Source: Nitrospira defluvii (lineage in GTDB: Bacteria > Nitrospirota > Nitrospiria > Nitrospirales > Nitrospiraceae). Taken from it: DNA of 64,000 nt. Shown piece after piece: positions 43,531 to 54,016 of the stretch. Every line of letters starts with the position of its first letter. Positions within the stretch are counted from its first letter, which is position 1. The DNA is taken from the NCBI GenBank assembly GCA_000196815.1, contig FP929003.1:992001-1056000 (forward strand). Reading direction: 5' to 3'. The translations under genes were made by a program, and so were the position numbers. Under the pieces are notes generated by a model, which saw only the letters and a program-made list of their open reading frames with translations, had not been told where the DNA came from and did no database searches.

Positions 43531-45642
<2,112 letters not shown>

Positions 45643-45896: not shown

Positions 45897-47774
45897 TTAA
45901 AAAAGCTTGGTCCCAACTCCTCGTACTGTCTCCGAGATCATATTGCTATTGCCGGACGTGAGGATCACAAAGACATTTCCTGGATATGTAACTCCTGCTC
46001 TCAATCGTTCCAGCACCGCTTCGCGTTTTGATTCAGATAAAAGCCTTCGTGGTTGCGCAGATAACACGTACACGGGGCGAGCCGGCAGGATCTTAATATC
46101 TTTCTCGCAAATCCATACGGATTCCACCTCCGGAATGACTTGCAGTTGTTGTCTAAGTGCCGCAAGCGCCTCATCGGAAAGTGACGTTCTCTTCAGACGG
46201 TCCTGAGGCGAAAGGAGTGTTCGCTCCTGCCGACTCAGGAGTTCTAGATCATAGTGCTGCTCTGCACGTCGTTTCCACTTTTCAGCCAACTGGATGTCGT
46301 TGCTGTTCTCTGCGTACCGGAGGGCATATTCGCAGGCGGCGTTGACGAGATGAAATTCGTCGGCAGCTCGTTCGAGATGCTGCAAGCCGATTTCATTGTT
46401 GCGGTGAAGCAAAAGCCGACCGATAGCAAGATCGGCTGCGCGATCAGTCGGATGGTCGGCTTTGTAGCGTTCATAGGACGGAAGGGGATCGAAGTCGGGT
46501 CGCAACTGCTCACTCAGCCATATGAATTCCCACTGTTCTTCTCGGGTCTGCTTTGCATGATCTATCTGGTCGAGTTCGGCCATTCGCATGGTCATTCTTT
46601 CACGGCGAGCAAATTGTTCCTTCCAAACTTCTTCATTGGCTTGTCGCCACTGCCGGTCGAACTCGGTGAGAATCGGACCTATCATTGACCCGAGCCACTC
46701 GTCTGCTGCGCGTGTATCCCCAGGTAGAGATAATTCCATCCGGGCTCCTAAGGCCGAGAGTCGATCCGGCAGGGAAGGGTGGGTGTCTGAAAGATTCGTT
46801 TTTCGGGAAATAAGTTTGCTGAGAAGTCTCCCATACTGAGTCGGGTCTAGTGTCCGATGTTGAACATGTCGGGCAAATTCTGAGACCGCCGTGTCCGGCG
46901 GGGTCGGCTCGGCACCTGACCGTTTACAGAGCGGTTCCCAGTATTGTTCATGATCAAGGGTGGGGAGTGCGGCTACTGCTACCAAGGCTGATGCCGTTTT
47001 GTGAGGCGAAGTCAGCACGGCCGCGATTCGGTCAGCTTCATACTCATTCGCTCGTGCCAGCGCAAAACTATATGCGGTGAAATAGGAGGCGTACCACTCA
47101 AGGAACCGGGCGGGAACTTCCCAGGAACGATGGTTCATCTGCGCGAATGCATCCTGTATGCGACACCAAGAGAGCCGGACGCGATAGATCCAGCCTCCAA
47201 ATCGACTATGATTGCCCGAAAGGTGCCCGAGTTCGTGAGCCAGGACGGCGCGTGCTTGCTCCGTTGAAAGTTCGAGGAGCAACGGAAGCCCGAGCATGAG
47301 GTAGTTGCGTTGCCAACCGAAAATTCCCAGCCTAGGCACTTGACTGATCGCCGCATTGAAATCATTGACAATCAATATGCGATGAATGCGCGGTGTTTGA
47401 AGCCTGGAACTCAGATGAGCGACTTCCTGGAATAGGCGAGGGCATTGTGCTTGTCGAACCCGATATCCAGTAGGTGCCTTAATCCGGACCCACAATGAGC
47501 GCAAAATCAGCAGACAAAACGCGGGAAAGAGCCAAATCAGCTTAGTCTTGATGAGCAGCAGCCACCAAGCATGACCGGACCAGGCCGCCCACACGCACAG
47601 GAAACCGATTAACAGCAAGACGCCCAGGATTCCGAAAATGACAAGATATCCAAGGATAGCCAGCAAAGCGATCGTGATGCGGTATTTTCGAGGGTTGGCC
47701 CGCATTGCTTGTTCCGCTTGTAAAACAAACGCTTCAAACCGTTCCCGTCGCTCGGTTGTGGACTGCGTTTTCAT
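45897..47774 (-). CDS. Membrane-bound M48-type zinc metallopeptidase
   Basis: 625 residues. Two or three membrane helices occupy residues 35-115, followed by the M48 catalytic region: HELGHLSGNHSRFGG (HExxH) and, further on, NEYEADRIAA supplying the Glu ligand and conserved Asp. The remaining 350 residues are a large helical C-terminal extension with TPR-like stretches (NNEIGLQHLERAADEFHLV). The architecture resembles peptidases of the HtpX/Ste24 clan rather than HtpX itself, which is far shorter. Start ATG 47774 is preferred over TTG 47780. Quality control of membrane proteins is a family inference. Confidence 0.88.
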   Translation of the reverse strand: MKTQSTTERRERFEAFVLQAEQAMRANPRKYRITIALLAILGYLVIFGILGVLLLIGFLCVWAAWSGHAWWLLLIKTKLIWLFPAFCLLILRSLWVRIKAPTGYRVRQAQCPRLFQEVAHLSSRLQTPRIHRILIVNDFNAAISQVPRLGIFGWQRNYLMLGLPLLLELSTEQARAVLAHELGHLSGNHSRFGGWIYRVRLSWCRIQDAFAQMNHRSWEVPARFLEWYASYFTAYSFALARANEYEADRIAAVLTSPHKTASALVAVAALPTLDHEQYWEPLCKRSGAEPTPPDTAVSEFARHVQHRTLDPTQYGRLLSKLISRKTNLSDTHPSLPDRLSALGARMELSLPGDTRAADEWLGSMIGPILTEFDRQWRQANEEVWKEQFARRERMTMRMAELDQIDHAKQTREEQWEFIWLSEQLRPDFDPLPSYERYKADHPTDRAADLAIGRLLLHRNNEIGLQHLERAADEFHLVNAACEYALRYAENSNDIQLAEKWKRRAEQHYDLELLSRQERTLLSPQDRLKRTSLSDEALAALRQQLQVIPEVESVWICEKDIKILPARPVYVLSAQPRRLLSESKREAVLERLRAGVTYPGNVFVILTSGNSNMISETVRGVGTKLF

Positions 47775-48385
47775 CGACAATTCTCAGCATTTCCCGAAGT
47801 CTGATGTCGTGTCAGGCCGCTGAGTTCCTGTAGGAGGGAAATGGTGAGTTCATGGTGTGAATGGGGGGATACTGGCCGCATCAATAGGCGATATCGGATA
47901 GTTGGACCAAGACTTGAGCGCTCAGCGTCAGGGAGGAAAACCGACGGATTGCTTTAGCGTACCTACCCAGCCAGAACTCACTGATTTCAACCAATTTCTT
48001 CATGGGTTCTCCCACCACGGCTCGGCATCTCAAATCACGGGAGCTACCAATCGAACCCCACCTTCTTAACGTGCAGCGGCAGCGCGAAGATATGCCCGGT
48101 GTAACTGCGCGCCTGTATCGCATCAGATACCGATCTCGTATCGTATCGGATACGAGATCGGATGCCGTAACGACGCCGCTGTTCCGGATCTTCAAGGTGT
48201 ATCTGTATAGCCGCTCGCAGGCGGTGAGCCGGGCGCGCCGTATTTCACAGACTTCCAAATACCTGCTTTCTTTTTGCAGTCGTTGAATGCGCCCCTGTCG
48301 AATGCGGTACACGGTTTGCTCTAGAGATACCTTTGGAGCGCTTCCCCGCAACCGCCACATTGCGACGATCCGGACGAGGTGAATC
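47775..48385. other. 611-bp intergenic region containing a strong inverted repeat
   Basis: No convincing gene. A 159-codon minus-strand frame (48360-47881) has very Arg-rich composition and no supporting start signals. The notable structure is the inverted repeat at 48131-48160. Confidence 0.5.
48131..48160. repeat. Perfect 12-bp inverted repeat with 6-bp spacer
   Basis: CGATCTCGTATC (48131-48142) and GATACGAGATCG (48149-48160) are exact reverse complements around GTATCG; further GTATC/GATAC words occur on both sides. It lies about 225 bp before the small gene at 48386, so it could be an operator. Confidence 0.7.
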
Positions 48386-48685
48386 GTGTTGCTGCACGTC
48401 GCACTGCAAGAGGGTTTTCATCATGATGAGGTGCGTGTGTCGGTGGATGCCCGGGAGGTGTTGGTGAGTGCCGACCTCACGACGCGTCGGCAAACCGGGT
48501 ATGCGGCGGCTGTGGAAGTCGACGTTGCACATACCCCGGTCGTCGTGGAGGTCGTTTTGAGCAAGCGGGGAGTGGCTGACAGCCAATCAGTTTCAGTGGA
48601 TCGTCCGACCTATCTCGGTGTGTCACTCACAACCGAAGGGAACCTCACCTGGAAAACTTCGTACGAACCCTTCGGGTACCTGTGA
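48386..48685 (+). CDS. Small beta-rich protein upstream of the metzincin-like gene, function unknown
   Basis: 99 residues from GTG 48386, seven bases after GAGG. The sequence alternates hydrophobic and polar residues (VRVSVDAREVLVSADL, YAAAVEVDVAHTPVVVEVVL), suggesting a small beta-sandwich; there is no signal peptide or Cys. No family recognised. It ends 62 bp before the metzincin-like gene on the same strand and could be its partner or inhibitor; this is inference from adjacency alone. Confidence 0.6.
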   Translation: MLLHVALQEGFHHDEVRVSVDAREVLVSADLTTRRQTGYAAAVEVDVAHTPVVVEVVLSKRGVADSQSVSVDRPTYLGVSLTTEGNLTWKTSYEPFGYL

Positions 48686-48747
48686 CGGGACGTACCGAAA
48701 CAGCGTGATGCCTGAAGGTCGTGACCTATCACAACAGGAGGTAGCGT

Positions 48748-51000
48748 ATGAAAGAGCAAGACCAAATCGATCAGGAGTATCGAGTCGAAGCCGCCGAAAT
48801 TGCCCGTCCTGGCATAGAGCCCCTCATCCCGATCATTCCCTGGCCGCCACGTCTCCGCGTGAGCGGATTGTATGCTGCGTCCCGGATCGTGACGCCCGCT
48901 ATCCCGGCGCCGGGTCCCCTGCCGATTCAACCCGTTCCAGTCGCGCAGCCGATGCCGGGCATGGCGCCGACAGCAGCCGCTCCGTGGCAAATTGAGGAAC
49001 TGCTCCCATGGGGTTTTCTTCGTGAAGAGCTGCGGCTCGATGTCGACGGGCGTTATCCGCAGATGATGGCCAGCGGAACGCTCTATGGCGTGTTGGCCAA
49101 ACGTGTGCACTGGATTGCCCGTCTCACCGCATCCGGGCCGAACGCTTGGACCGGTTCGATTTGGTTCAAGGACGGCGACGTCGCCAGCTTCCCTTACACG
49201 ATGGTCGAAATCACGACGACGGCGACCTTTCTCTCCAGCCAGCGCAAGGCGGTTGTCCGGTTCTCAGGCGGCGGCACGTCGGTCCGGACGAGAACGCTGG
49301 CGTTCAAATCTCCGTATTTCAGACAGGTGGAATTCGAGTTCGACTGCGCCACCGGTGTCACCGCGACCACGCACATCGGCACCCATGATCATCCGAACCG
49401 TCCGGCTACGTTGCCGGGCGAGACGCTCACTATCGAGGAGGTTTACCGGAGGGTCGGGTTCGACGTGCGGAAGTCCGGCAGCGACAGCATCGTTCCCATC
49501 GGCGATGCGGGTACGAATGCGCGTTGGAGCGACAACGAAATGCATGATGCGATGCAAGTGTACTGGTCGCGATTTGCCGGCAAGGCGCAGTGGTCGCTGT
49601 GGGTGTTCTTCGCCCGGTTGCACGAGCAAGGCACGAGCCTGGGCGGTATCATGTTTGACGACATCGGGCCGAATCATCGCCAGGGGACGGCGATTTTCAA
49701 CGAGTCGTTCATCTCGACGGCGCCGACCGGTGATGCCAATCCGGTCGCGTGGGCCAAGCGGATGCGGTTCTGGACGGCGTGCCACGAAATGGGACACGCC
49801 TTCAATCTCGCGCATTCGTGGCAAAAGCAACACCCGCCGGACTGGGGTACCCCGTGGATTCCGTTGGCCAACGAGCCGGAAGCCCGCAGCTTCATGAACT
49901 ACCCCTACAACGTGTCCGGCGGCCAGACGGCGTTTTTCTCCGACTTCGCCTTCCGGTTCAGTGACAATGAGTTGATATTCATGCGCCATGCGCCGGAGCG
50001 GTTTGTGCAGATGGGGAATGCCGATTGGTTCGATCACCATGGATTCGAGCAGGCGAGTGCTTCACCGGAGCCCGCGTTAAAGCTCAATCTTCGCGTCGAT
50101 CGGGCCCAAGCCACGTACCAATTCCTCGAACCGGTCGTGCTTGAGCTCAAGCTCACCAATATCGGTCCGCGTCCGATGGTGCTGGAAAAGGAATTGCTGT
50201 CCATGACGGATCACATGACCGTCATCGTCAAGAAGCGGGACAAGCCGGCCCGGCAGTACCTGCCCTTTGCGCGCTATTGCCACGACATGCAGGCTCAGGT
50301 GGTGATGCCCGGGGAATTTGTGACCGATTCGCTCTTTATCTCTGTCGGGCGGAACGGCTGGGATATTGCCGAGCCGGGCTATTACACGATCCAGATCGCC
50401 CTCCATATGGAGACGGAGGATATTGTCTCTGAGGCTCTGACGATCCGTGTCGCTCCTCCACGGGGCTACGACGAAGAGTTTATTGCGCAGGACTTCTTTT
50501 CTGATGACGTCGGCCGCATCCTCAATTTCGACGGCAGCGCCATACTTCGTCGAGGGAACGATACGCTCAGGGAGGTGAGTGAGCGGTTCGGTGATCGTGC
50601 GGTGGCCAATCATGCGCGTGTGGCCCTGGCTGCGCCGCTGGCCAGGGACTACAAGGTGCTCGACATGGGCGATCGAATGGGAGAGATGGCCTCCGCAAAG
50701 GAGGCCGGAGGACGTCTCCGTCGAGCCGCCCCCCGTATTGAGGAGGCTCGGCAGCTCTATACGAGCGCTCTGCTTGAGAAGAAAGATCAGGCGATTGCGA
50801 CCTTGGGACGGACCGACTATGAATATTATCTGGGCCGGTTCAGAGAGTCATTGATGGAGCATGGAGCCGTGCTGAAGAAAGAGCCGCGGGACGTCAAACG
50901 AGATGCCAAGCGCGAAAAGAACGGTGATATCGAGCACACGATGAGAGTGATTAAGGAGACACTCTCCAGCCTCAAAGATCAGGAGCCGGTCTCTCGCTAA
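48748..51000 (+). CDS. Metzincin-like zinc metalloprotease with HExxHxxNxxH motif
   Basis: 750-residue protein. After a Pro-rich N-terminus (residues 25-75) and a beta-rich region, the zinc site reads HEMGHAFNLAHSW: His346, Glu347, His350 and His356, spaced as in metzincins but with Asn where Gly is usual. A Met-turn follows in SFMNYPY (Met383), 27 residues after the third His. Residues 435-575 look like an Ig-like beta domain (VVLELKLTNIGPRPMVLEKEL), and the C-terminal 150 residues are helical and charged. There is no signal peptide, which is odd for a metzincin. A fine AGGAGG site lies ahead of ATG 48748. Protease activity is inferred from the motif. Confidence 0.78.
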   Translation: MKEQDQIDQEYRVEAAEIARPGIEPLIPIIPWPPRLRVSGLYAASRIVTPAIPAPGPLPIQPVPVAQPMPGMAPTAAAPWQIEELLPWGFLREELRLDVDGRYPQMMASGTLYGVLAKRVHWIARLTASGPNAWTGSIWFKDGDVASFPYTMVEITTTATFLSSQRKAVVRFSGGGTSVRTRTLAFKSPYFRQVEFEFDCATGVTATTHIGTHDHPNRPATLPGETLTIEEVYRRVGFDVRKSGSDSIVPIGDAGTNARWSDNEMHDAMQVYWSRFAGKAQWSLWVFFARLHEQGTSLGGIMFDDIGPNHRQGTAIFNESFISTAPTGDANPVAWAKRMRFWTACHEMGHAFNLAHSWQKQHPPDWGTPWIPLANEPEARSFMNYPYNVSGGQTAFFSDFAFRFSDNELIFMRHAPERFVQMGNADWFDHHGFEQASASPEPALKLNLRVDRAQATYQFLEPVVLELKLTNIGPRPMVLEKELLSMTDHMTVIVKKRDKPARQYLPFARYCHDMQAQVVMPGEFVTDSLFISVGRNGWDIAEPGYYTIQIALHMETEDIVSEALTIRVAPPRGYDEEFIAQDFFSDDVGRILNFDGSAILRRGNDTLREVSERFGDRAVANHARVALAAPLARDYKVLDMGDRMGEMASAKEAGGRLRRAAPRIEEARQLYTSALLEKKDQAIATLGRTDYEYYLGRFRESLMEHGAVLKKEPRDVKRDAKREKNGDIEHTMRVIKETLSSLKDQEPVSR

Positions 51001-51765: not shown

Positions 51766-52047
51766 CTAGAGGACGCCTCGTTCGATCTCTTCCAGATACA
51801 GAAAGTCCGGCGCTTTTACCCCGGCTGCTCGCCTCAGTTCGACCAACTCCGGTGACTCGAAGAAGCGCCGGGCGCTCTCTAGCGAAGACCAGGCCGAGAA
51901 GTGGACGATGCGGTTGGCATCTTCGTTGTAACGCAGGAGTTGGTAACTGATTTCCCCGGCACGTTTTCGCAGATCCGTCGCGCCATCGAACACGGCTTTC
52001 CAAGCCGGGTAGGCTTCGACTTCGTGAATAATCAACACGTGGGGCAT
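51766..52047 (-). CDS. ABM-like dimeric alpha/beta-barrel protein, intact copy
   Basis: 93 residues: MPHVLIIHEVEAYPAWKAVFD, then a helix with LRKRAGEISYQLLR, the strand VHFSAWSSLESARRFFESPEL and the C-terminal AGVKAPDFLYLEEIE. The beta-alpha-beta layout and the W/F phrases match the antibiotic-biosynthesis-monooxygenase / DUF1330-like superfamily of small dimeric barrels, whose members are heme-degrading, monooxygenase or stress proteins. A truncated duplicate lies at 53690. A shared promoter-like module precedes both. Confidence 0.8.
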   Translation of the reverse strand: MPHVLIIHEVEAYPAWKAVFDGATDLRKRAGEISYQLLRYNEDANRIVHFSAWSSLESARRFFESPELVELRRAAGVKAPDFLYLEEIERGVL

Positions 52048-52698: not shown

Positions 52699-52953
52699 CT
52701 AGCGAATCAACTGGTCATATTCGGCGTGTATTCCAATCCAAAACCAGACGATTCCGTCCGCTGCCTCTACTCCCACCGCCCGGTAACTGAGACTCACACG
52801 AGCGGACCAGTATCGACCTACCTTTTTGAAATGCAAAGACGGATGCTGAGGTTTTGCCTTCAGGAGTGCAAAGGCTTTGTCGGCTTGTTCACGGATCGGA
52901 GCCGGGAGGGCGTTATAACAGGACCAAAACTCTGGTGAAGCGTGATGGTTCAA
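52699..52953 (-). CDS. RelE/ParE superfamily toxin-like protein
   Basis: 84 residues with the RelE/ParE-type pattern: FWSCYNALPAPIREQADKAFALLKAKPQHPSLHFKKVGRYWSARVSLSYRAVGV and a closing WFWIGIHAEYDQLI. Close in style to the small toxins often found with AbrB- or helix-type antitoxins. It begins four bases inside the end of the antitoxin-like gene, so translation is coupled. Whether it cleaves mRNA or acts on gyrase cannot be told. Confidence 0.85.
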   Translation of the reverse strand: MNHHASPEFWSCYNALPAPIREQADKAFALLKAKPQHPSLHFKKVGRYWSARVSLSYRAVGVEAADGIVWFWIGIHAEYDQLIR

Positions 52954-53150
52954 AGTTTCGTTGACTGCCCGGAAGTGTGGGCACGAAGCGCCTTCTTGGC
53001 CAGCGCATCAAGCTTGCCGGCTTGGACATCGGCCTCGAACTGGCGGTCCCAGGCCTCGGCGTCAAACGCGGCATACCAAGAACGGAACGCGGCAAGCTCT
53101 GCGGGAGAAAGCTTCTCAATCTGCTGCTCGATCGCTTCGACGTTGCTCAT
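52950..53150 (-). CDS. Antitoxin-like partner of the RelE/ParE toxin
   Basis: 66 residues, acidic and helical: EQQIEKLSPAELAAFRSWYAAFDAEAWDRQFEADVQAGKLDALAKKAL. This matches the small antitoxin type that pairs with RelE/ParE-like toxins and contains SPEEL.FR.W, D..AWD.Q.E.D, and GKLD.LA..AL phrases. Antitoxin first, toxin second, four-base overlap, is the usual type II order. The DNA-binding part is not obvious. Confidence 0.83.
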   Translation of the reverse strand: MSNVEAIEQQIEKLSPAELAAFRSWYAAFDAEAWDRQFEADVQAGKLDALAKKALRAHTSGQSTKL

Positions 53151-53689: not shown

Positions 53690-54016
53690 TCAATGTTGAA
53701 TGGTCTGGATAAGCGGCGAGGGGCACCTTACAGATGACGAAGGAGCCGGTCCGCCACGCGCCGCGAAATATTGATTCAATAAAAGATTCCCGACCCCTTT
53801 TCTGTCACCGAACAACTCCGGGGACTCGAAGAAGCGACGGGCGTTCTCCAGTGAAGACCAGGCCGAGAAGTGGACGACGGTGTTGGCATCGTTGTCGTAC
53901 CGCAGGAGTTGGTGGCTGATTTCCCCTGCACGTTTTCTGAGATCTGCCGCGTGATCGAACACGGCTTTCCATGCGGGATAGGCTTCGACTTCATGAATGA
54001 TCAACACGTGGGGCAT
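53690..54016 (-). pseudogene. Truncated duplicate of the ABM-like gene
   Basis: The first 71 codons match the gene at 51766 nearly throughout (MPHVLIIHEVEAYPAWKAVFD identical, then LRKRAGEIS.QLLRY and VHFSAWSSLE.ARRFFESPEL). After ESPEL the sequence diverges: the family's C-terminal strand is replaced by an unrelated tail ending at 53690, so the frame stays open for 108 codons. The break is next to a sequence GATTCCCGACCCCTTTT on the plus strand, resembling REP-type repeats. The product would lack a conserved strand and is probably non-functional. Confidence 0.7.

What the first reader, a model, noticed from the sequence alone, without database searches (positions are those of the whole stretch)
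48386..51000. Cytoplasmic metzincin-like protein with Asn in the zinc motif and a small beta partner
HEMGHAFNLAH with Met-turn SFMNYPY fits metzincins except for Asn in the Gly position, and the protein lacks a signal peptide yet carries an Ig-like domain and a charged helical tail. A 99-residue beta-rich gene precedes it. Metzincins are normally secreted, so the location, target and possible small inhibitor make this pair worth attention as an undescribed system.
Basis: partly seen in the sequence, partly recalled or inferred. Interest (0 to 1): 0.55.

Follow-up and report, generated by a model that had tools for sequence, protein, structure and literature searches.

The report
Sigma-54-switched metzincin with small partner
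A nitrite-oxidising Nitrospira carries a two-gene cassette that makes a zinc-protease-like protein without an export signal together with a small beta-sheet protein, apparently switched on by the same kind of control sequence as many surface and injection-machine genes; the protease motif itself is ordinary, the packaging is not.

Summary
Both genes are real. The 99-codon gene stays open in 13 of 13 genomes that carry the pair (dN/dS 0.20); the 750-aa protein evolves very slowly (0.06). In 175 Nitrospiraceae genomes no intact orthologue of the large gene lacks the small one. In the 8 pair-less genomes whose site is readable back to thiC, the whole cassette is missing. The Asn in HEMGHAFNLAH is not an exception: a 2024 paper gives the clan motif as HExxHxxG/NxxH, and ulilysin has Asn there.

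New here: (1) Two GTATC-N6-GATAC sites exactly 23 bp apart and a sigma-54 (-24/-12) promoter stand before the operon in 13 of 13 genomes. The site is enriched genome-wide, also precedes the homologous metzincins, and stands before the activator gene of an eCIS (contractile injection) cluster in 11 of 17 copies examined. (2) The 750-aa protein is a signal-less fusion of what relatives encode as two exported proteins: a metzincin and an Ig/TPR-like protein. (3) A full-length paralogue family has canonical Gly and a different small neighbour.

Best reading: a sigma-54-switched metzincin made in the cytosol, with its small transthyretin-like protein as guard or chaperone. Protease activity, inhibition, export route and target are untested; delivery by the eCIS is only a possibility.

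The parts
48115..48130 (+). upstream activator-type site 1, GTATCGCATCAGATAC
   Evidence: present with at most 1 mismatch in 13 of 13 loci, always 23 bp (start to start) before site 2; genome-wide excess of the motif
48138..48153 (+). upstream activator-type site 2, GTATCGTATCGGATAC
   Evidence: no mismatch to GTATC-N6-GATAC in 13 of 13 loci
48305..48320 (+). sigma-54 -24/-12 promoter element CGGTACACGGTTTGCT (GG-N10-GC)
   Evidence: GGTA[CT]AC-N3-TTGC in 13 of 13 loci, beginning 79-95 bp before the GTG; score p = 0.004 against random 350-bp stretches
48386..48685 (+). small gene, 99 aa, transthyretin-like beta-sandwich, proposed cytosolic guard or chaperone
   Evidence: coding conservation; AF2 pLDDT 81.7; fold matches
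48736..48741 (+). Shine-Dalgarno AGGAGG of the large gene
   Evidence: AGGAGG followed by ATG in 13 of 13 loci
48748..51000 (+). large gene, 750 aa, signal-less metzincin-like protein
48811..48987 (+). Pro-rich N-terminal stretch (about residues 22-80), no signal peptide
   Evidence: 20% Pro in the first 90 residues, no hydrophobic segment
49327..50049 (+). metzincin-like region (residues 194-434)
   Evidence: profile-profile match to the separately encoded metzincins, 98.6%, E 1.3e-15
49783..49815 (+). zinc motif HEMGHAFNLAH (residues 346-356)
   Evidence: H346, E347, H350 and H356 invariant in alignments A2 and A3
49888..49908 (+). Met-turn SFMNYPY (residues 381-387)
   Evidence: M383 and N384 invariant in A3
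50083..50679 (+). Ig-like plus TPR-like region (residues 446-644)
   Evidence: profile-profile match to the separately encoded ~335-aa exported protein, 99.3%, E 9.5e-21; weak TPR_19 hits in relatives
50695..50997 (+). charged C-terminal tail (residues 650-750), helical by eye
   Evidence: sequence only; structure model failed

Best explanation
A two-gene operon switched on by a sigma-54 enhancer-binding activator that binds tandem GTATC-N6-GATAC sites. The first gene makes a 99-aa transthyretin-like beta-sandwich that stays in the cytosol. The second makes a 750-aa zinc metzincin that is the single-chain, signal-less form of a protease plus Ig/TPR-like protein that relatives export separately. 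Proposed mechanism: the small protein binds the protease as it is made and keeps it harmless or export-competent, as staphostatins do for staphopains (recalled analogy). The protease is then released by a non-Sec route or on lysis and cuts envelope or matrix proteins under the conditions in which the cell remodels its exterior. Shown: gene reality, co-inheritance, conserved regulatory sites, motif, homology to the split exported pair. Inferred: that an activator binds the sites, zinc binding, proteolysis, guard role, export, target.
For: Small and large genes occur in the same 13 of 175 Nitrospiraceae genomes; no genome has the small gene alone and one (G027) has only a large-gene remnant. The site pair, -24/-12 and the ribosome site of the large gene are conserved in 13 of 13. 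In the 8 of 12 fetched pair-less intervals that reach back to thiC, neither genes nor tandem sites are found. Three paralogues and the 33% relative in G040 keep the same type of upstream site (4 of 4 tested). The motif is in excess genome-wide (33+31 matches against 1+2 for the reversed control). 14 of 25 site groups have a -24/-12-like element at p < 0.05 in one direction (about 2 expected over the 35 directions scored; 12 of 23 without the window itself and the hand-added eCIS group). Genes near the sites lean to the exterior. Homology to a lipoprotein-type metzincin and an exported Ig/TPR-like protein. Catalytic motif kept at dN/dS 0.06.
Against: No direct sign that the small protein inhibits or binds the large one. 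The 99-aa gene is not found next to the paralogues or the G040 relative, which have unrelated small neighbours; in G040 the paralogue's neighbour has a signal-like N-terminus, so it would not be a cytosolic guard there. No export signal is seen, so action in the cytosol is equally compatible with the sequence. Metzincin membership rests on short motifs and sub-threshold profile hits. The upstream site is found at only 1 of 8 split operons. Two of the four relatives with the site show no -24/-12 by the pattern used, and 11 of 25 site groups lack a convincing one.
Confidence: 0.4

Rival explanations
1. eCIS cargo: the metzincin (and its paralogue) is loaded without a Sec signal into the extracellular contractile injection system of the same genome and delivered to neighbouring cells, the small protein being its chaperone or immunity protein.
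For: An eCIS cluster lies at G000:2161-2193 kb: sheath, tube, baseplate and spike proteins, an AAA ATPase and five eCIS_core proteins. Its sigma-54 activator gene has the same kind of site upstream in 11 of 17 copies examined and a -24/-12 element in the own genome. All 14 genomes with a full-length fused form have a sheath gene. Cargo of eCIS lacks Sec signals (general knowledge).
Against: Sheath genes are common in this genus (26 of 29; 13 of 16 without the pair), so co-occurrence is not informative. The site at the eCIS activator does not track the pair: 6 of 10 pair carriers and 5 of 7 others have it; three more carriers (G009, G010, G020) were not examined because their sheath is more diverged. 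The pair is 1.1 Mb from the cluster with no eCIS_core gene beside it. The N-terminus does not fit the published eCIS signal trend (residues 6-21 slightly positive, PMC11297309 passages): here the net charge is -2. Most genes near the sites are unrelated to eCIS.
Confidence: 0.12
2. Cytosolic protease acting on intracellular targets during the sigma-54 response, with the small protein as adaptor or regulator.
For: No signal peptide, lipobox or TM-like segment in 5 of 5 fused forms tested. Extreme sequence conservation fits a specific intracellular partner network.
Against: The separately encoded relatives are exported and the genes near the shared sites lean to exterior functions.
Confidence: 0.28
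3. Catalytically inactive metzincin fold used as a binding scaffold; the small protein is a structural partner.
For: I know of no activity for any member; the catalytic region matches metzincin models only below their cut-offs.
Against: All three zinc-ligand His and the Glu are invariant across the fused (A3) and separately encoded (A6) forms, which are about 25-33% identical; this is unexpected for a dead enzyme.
Confidence: 0.12
4. Two independent genes that only share a promoter; the small protein serves another function.
For: Different small genes flank the related metzincins.
Against: Strict co-inheritance and joint absence.
Confidence: 0.08

Closest known systems
Pappalysin-type metzincins (ulilysin, mirolysin, cytophagalysin; MEROPS M43)
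   Same: HExxHxxNxxH zinc motif with Asn in ulilysin (HEIGHWLNLYH); Met-turn followed by Tyr two residues on, like the tyrosine switch described in PMC11674741 (passages)
   Different: No Pfam M43 match at E <= 1; no signal peptide; fused to an Ig/TPR-like part; the paralogue has Gly and no Tyr after the Met-turn
Matrixins, adamalysins and reprolysin-like M12B peptidases
   Same: best Pfam hits: Reprolysin_4 E 4.9e-4 for the window protein, Matrixin E 3.5e-4 for the paralogue; the separately encoded forms hit a snake-venom metalloproteinase at E 6.9e-4
   Different: all these Pfam hits are below the curated cut-offs; multidomain context not shared
PEP-CTERM/PrsR sigma-54 control (Haft et al. 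2006, PMC1569441)
   Same: a sometimes repeated activator motif followed by a -24/-12 element upstream of exterior genes; the genome has a PrsR-like regulator scoring 501.6 bits against a cut-off of 502.6
   Different: published motif 1 ends in TTTACA and is reported only for proteobacteria; here GTATC-N6-GATAC, with a longer spacer (151 bp here against 32-92), and the large protein ends without a PEP-CTERM tail
eCIS and its associated toxins (PMC8213781, PMC11297309)
   Same: signal-less proteins in a genome with an eCIS whose activator gene carries the same kind of upstream site
   Different: not in the eCIS locus, no DUF4157/eCIS_core, N-terminal charge does not fit
Staphostatin/staphopain and similar protease-inhibitor operons (recalled; only a search listing seen)
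   Same: small beta protein co-transcribed with a protease
   Different: no sequence relation shown; protease class differs; inhibition untested

Membership tests
metzincin clan | HExxHxx(G/N)xx(H/D) motif | tested here: met
   HEMGHAFNLAH; equivalent motifs in all members of alignments A2, A3 and A6; G/N as in PMC11674741
metzincin clan | Met-turn downstream of the third zinc ligand | tested here: met
   SFMNY, Met 27 residues after His356; M383 invariant in A3
metzincin clan | profile match above a curated cut-off | tested here: not met
   best Reprolysin_4 20.2 bits against 22; Matrixin 20.9 against 24 for the paralogue
metzincin clan | catalytic-domain fold | tested here: inconclusive
   AF2 model of the large protein failed, pLDDT 29.8
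metzincin clan | zinc binding and proteolysis | not testable with these tools
   needs protein
pappalysins (M43) | M43 family model match | tested here: not met
   no M43 model at E <= 1 for the window protein
pappalysins (M43) | calcium site and disulfides of the bacterial and archaeal members | not tested
   no reliable structural alignment
PEP-CTERM/PrsR regulon | repeated activator motif plus -24/-12 element | tested here: met
   architecture met in 13 of 13; motif letters and spacer differ from the published ones
PEP-CTERM/PrsR regulon | published motif 1 (3' end TTTACA) | tested here: not met
   the conserved sites read GTATC-N6-GATAC
PEP-CTERM proteins | C-terminal PEP plus TM plus basic tail | tested here: not met
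   large protein ends SSLKDQEPVSR, no hydrophobic segment
eCIS cargo | encoded in or next to an eCIS locus, or next to an eCIS_core/DUF4157 gene | tested here: not met
   pair at 1.04 Mb, cluster at 2.16 Mb; conserved neighbours are thiC and a 376-aa gene
eCIS cargo | slightly positive residues 6-21 | tested here: not met
   net charge -2 in residues 6-21 by sequence; trend from PMC11297309 passages
eCIS cargo | found in eCIS particles | not testable with these tools
   needs protein
transthyretin-like beta-sandwich (small protein) | fold similarity | tested here: inconclusive
   Z 9.3 to the HGSNAT lumenal domain, 7.7-8.2 to transthyretins; a common arrangement

The most novel reading that the evidence does not exclude
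Nitrospira keeps a family of signal-less, single-chain metzincins related by fusion to an exported protease and its Ig/TPR-like partner. They are wired to the sigma-54-type activator site also found at the genome's injection system and surface genes, each fused member with its own small beta protein as guard, and are delivered by the contractile injection system to other cells in the floc.
Probability: 0.1. Interest if true: 0.75.

Novelty: new variant of a known kind. Interest (0 to 1): 0.47.

Why it matters
Metzincins are usually exported through a signal peptide. A conserved branch without one, built as a single chain from two parts that relatives export separately and tied to a sigma-54-type programme that also touches an injection system, gives a concrete case for asking how such a protease is kept harmless and how it leaves the cell. 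It also yields a testable activator motif for the exterior programme of nitrite-oxidising Nitrospira.

Tried and rejected
The Asn as an anomaly: rejected, because the clan motif allows G or N. The small ORF as a spurious frame: rejected. AF2 on the large protein: failed with an 8-row alignment (pLDDT 29.8); no fold search was made with it. Small protein: no match in NCBIfam or PHROGs and only one sub-threshold Pfam hit (DUF5403, E 0.21); two PDB sequence hits at E 0.65 and 0.67; no relation to the 171-aa neighbour in G040; the viral fold library gave nothing at E <= 0.001. Other small neighbours: no Pfam match at E <= 1. The genome-contig scan used two near-exact peptide patterns, so it would miss distant small-gene homologues; it found 8 loci, all Nitrospira. 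Pair and sheath association within the genus is not informative (13 of 13 against 13 of 16), and the site at the eCIS activator does not track the pair (6 of 10 carriers, 5 of 7 others). M48 peptidase next door (45897-47780) as part of the system: rejected, no match at E 1e-15 in the 8 orthologous loci examined. PrsR as the binding protein: not shown; the genome has 29 strong matches of this activator type. In the regulon analysis the L110 group was added by hand because it has one mismatch and no clean second site; the 25 groups come from stretches I chose from hits, L093 was left out because one search showed no qualifying site in it, and directions without a called gene were not scored. The control for the motif count is the reversed pattern; as the motif is nearly palindromic, many places are counted on both strands. 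In the window alone the motif at up to 2 mismatches is not in excess (15 against 15.5 expected). Relatives of the Ig/TPR-like part were first taken for stand-alone proteins; in all 8 loci examined they follow a metzincin gene. PADLOC was not searched.

Literature: PMC1569441 section 7 and passages read; PMC11674741, PMC9850573, PMC9445424, PMC11297309 and PMC8213781 passages only; PMC3162934 seen only as a search listing. PMC9445424 prints the pappalysin motif with G only. None of the listings shows this pair; no search could name it, so absence from print is not established.
Full report
What was checked. The window is G000:C1:992001-1056000 of a 4,317,083-base single-contig genome. The assembly is unnamed; the 8 named loci that encode the small protein are all Nitrospira, and the size is what I recall for Candidatus Nitrospira defluvii. 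Both reported ORFs are present at the stated places.

The small gene is real. In 13 loci (L001-L013) the 99-codon frame starts with GTG and has no stop and no indel. The other five frames are open in 0, 3, 0, 0 and 0 of 13. Variable sites by codon position are 38, 28 and 79, and the median NG86 dN/dS is 0.197 over 78 pairs. The large gene has a median dN/dS of 0.062 over 66 pairs of 12 copies; the thirteenth copy (G026) has a TAG in frame.

Co-occurrence. Of 175 Nitrospiraceae genomes, 13 have the small gene. These are the 13 genomes with a full-length orthologue of the large gene at 91% or more (13 of 100 genomes, counting the window's own; one search adds none among 175). G027 has only a broken stretch of the large gene, at the same place upstream of the 376-aa gene, and no small gene. 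The pair lies between thiC and that 376-aa gene in the 8 of 8 orthologous 20-kb loci examined. The genus has 16 genomes without the intact pair; I fetched the stretch upstream of the 376-aa gene for 12 of them. Eight of the 12 contain thiC; none of those 8 has either gene or the tandem sites. The other 4 were G027 with its remnant, a 0.9-kb contig end, and two in which thiC was not reached.

Regulation. In 13 of 13 loci two GTATC-N6-GATAC sites (one mismatch in one site of one copy) begin exactly 23 bp apart. A GGTA[CT]AC-N3-TTGC element (GG-N10-GC) begins 79-95 bp before the small gene, and AGGAGG precedes the ATG of the large one. In the own genome the pattern TGTATCNNATCNGATAC with up to 2 mismatches has 33+31 matches against 1+2 for the reversed control, and GTATC-N6-GATAC with up to 1 mismatch has 135 places against 46. 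Many sites are tandem at 20-23 bp. Of 25 site groups in the stretches I fetched, 14 have a -24/-12-like element within 350 bp in at least one direction at p < 0.05, where about 2 are expected over the 35 directions scored; without the window itself and the hand-added eCIS group it is 12 of 23. This is the architecture of sigma-54 promoters with enhancer-binding activators. Haft et al. described such an arrangement, with a different activator motif and a shorter spacer, for PEP-CTERM genes in proteobacteria (PMC1569441, section 7).

Genes near the sites. With a promoter-like element at p < 0.05: a ShlB-type two-partner-secretion transporter (L101), a polysaccharide deacetylase with DUF3473 (L097), a tyrosinase (L102), a di-haem cytochrome c peroxidase (L105), a PilZ protein 0.9 kb away (L092), unassigned proteins (L098, L106, L109), a protein with only a weak EI24 hit (L108), a 1031-aa ORF upstream of a second ShlB-type gene (L094), and an element 1 kb before a TonB-dependent receptor (L094). 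With a site but no such element: a caspase-domain protein (L099), a pYEATS membrane protein (L107) and a patatin-GNAT protein (L095). One site lies 239 bp before a sigma-54 activator gene (PF00158, E 3.4e-60) that opens an eCIS cluster with sheath, tube, baseplate and spike proteins, an AAA ATPase and five eCIS_core proteins. Of 17 genus copies of this activator region examined, 11 have such a site upstream of the activator gene at up to 1 mismatch and 6 do not. Pair carriers do not differ from others (6 of 10 against 5 of 7). In three further sheath loci from other genera no activator gene was recognised; one of them has a site.

The protein family. A3 aligns the window protein with a relative in another genus (G040, 31% identity in A3) and with three full-length paralogues (25-26%), one in the own genome. 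The window branch and the G040 relative have Asn in the motif (HEMGHAFNLAH, HELGHCFNLLH); the paralogue branch has Gly (HE[TA]GHAMGLYH). All four of these relatives carry a similar site at -265 to -286; by the pattern used, two of them have a -24/-12 element, at -141 and -143. Other Nitrospiraceae encode the two halves apart: a 250-280 aa metzincin with a hydrophobic N-terminus, in three of the four scored with a lipobox (HE[IMAL]GH[AG]FNL[HN]H), followed in 8 of 8 loci examined by an exported Ig/TPR-like protein of about 320-360 aa. Profile comparison matches the first to residues 194-434 (98.6%, E 1.3e-15) and the second to residues 446-644 (99.3%, E 9.5e-21) of the window protein. Which form is older, fused or split, was not tested. 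The fused forms have no hydrophobic N-terminus in 5 of 5. The upstream site was found at 1 of 8 split operons (L050).

Neighbours of the relatives. The paralogue is followed by a 120-aa gene, beta-rich by eye, with matches of 84% and 47% beside the paralogues of two other genomes; in G040 this has a signal-like start. The G040 relative of the window branch is followed by a 171-aa gene. The 171-aa protein is not related to the 99-aa one by BLASTP; the 120-aa one was not compared, but a genome search with the 99-aa protein did not find it.

Structure. The small protein is predicted as an eight-stranded sandwich (pLDDT 81.7, pTM 0.75). Its nearest folds are the lumenal domain of HGSNAT (Z up to 9.3) and, at Z 7.7-8.8, carbohydrate-binding modules, the fourth domain of cholesterol-dependent cytolysins, transthyretins and TssJ, a common arrangement that shows no function. 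The large model failed.

Is the Asn unusual? No. The 2024 cytophagalysin paper writes the metzincin motif as H-E-x-x-H-x-x-G/N-x-x-H/D (PMC11674741, passages), and ulilysin reads HEIGHWLNLYH in the PDB alignment. Profile hits to metzincin families are consistently weak: Reprolysin_4 E 4.9e-4, below cut-off; Matrixin E 3.5e-4 for the paralogue, below cut-off; myroilysin E 0.0086 with A3; a snake-venom metalloproteinase E 6.9e-4 with the separately encoded forms.

Interpretation. I think it most likely that this is a sigma-54-switched operon for a metzincin that is made in the cytosol and kept safe or export-ready by its small partner, and that acts on envelope or matrix proteins after leaving the cell by a route not visible in the sequence. 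The regulatory wiring and the exported split relatives favour action outside; the missing signal and the missing eCIS signature weigh against any named route. The eCIS idea is attractive but only weakly supported, and I give it 0.12. A purely cytosolic role is the strongest rival at 0.28. The corrections made on checking (11 instead of 12 of 17 copies; five eCIS_core proteins; GTG in 13 of 13; 8 of 8 split loci) did not call for other odds.

Noticed in passing
G000:C1, L110/L112/L113 (2161-2193 kb): eCIS cluster opened by a sigma-54 activator gene; a GTATC-type site upstream of it in 11 of 17 genus copies examined. The Nat Commun 2021 passages I saw name GerE, BTAD and RfaH regulators, not a sigma-54 activator.
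   Followed up: partly
G000:C1 genome-wide, e.g. 498858, 508950, 1742527, 3657209, 4231426: A sigma-54-type regulon of tandem GTATC-N6-GATAC sites, leaning to exterior genes; the binding activator is unknown.
   Followed up: partly
L016-L020, L049, L050, L181: Two-gene operons of an exported metzincin and an exported Ig/TPR-like protein, the split form of the window protein.
   Followed up: yes
window 45897-47780 (-): M48 peptidase beside the pair, without a match in the 8 orthologous loci examined.
   Followed up: partly
window 45539-45642 (-): TPP riboswitch at the 5' end of thiC, as expected.
   Followed up: no
window 51766-52047 and 53690-54016 (-): Two similar copies of a small gene (MPHVLIIHEVEAYPAWKAVFD...), the second with a different C-terminus.
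   Followed up: no
window 52699-53150 (-): Looks like a RelE/ParE-type toxin gene with a small antitoxin-like gene (by eye, not tested).
   Followed up: no
L012/L026 (G026): Copy of the large gene with an in-frame TAG just after the Met-turn, in a metagenome assembly; decay or assembly error.
   Followed up: no
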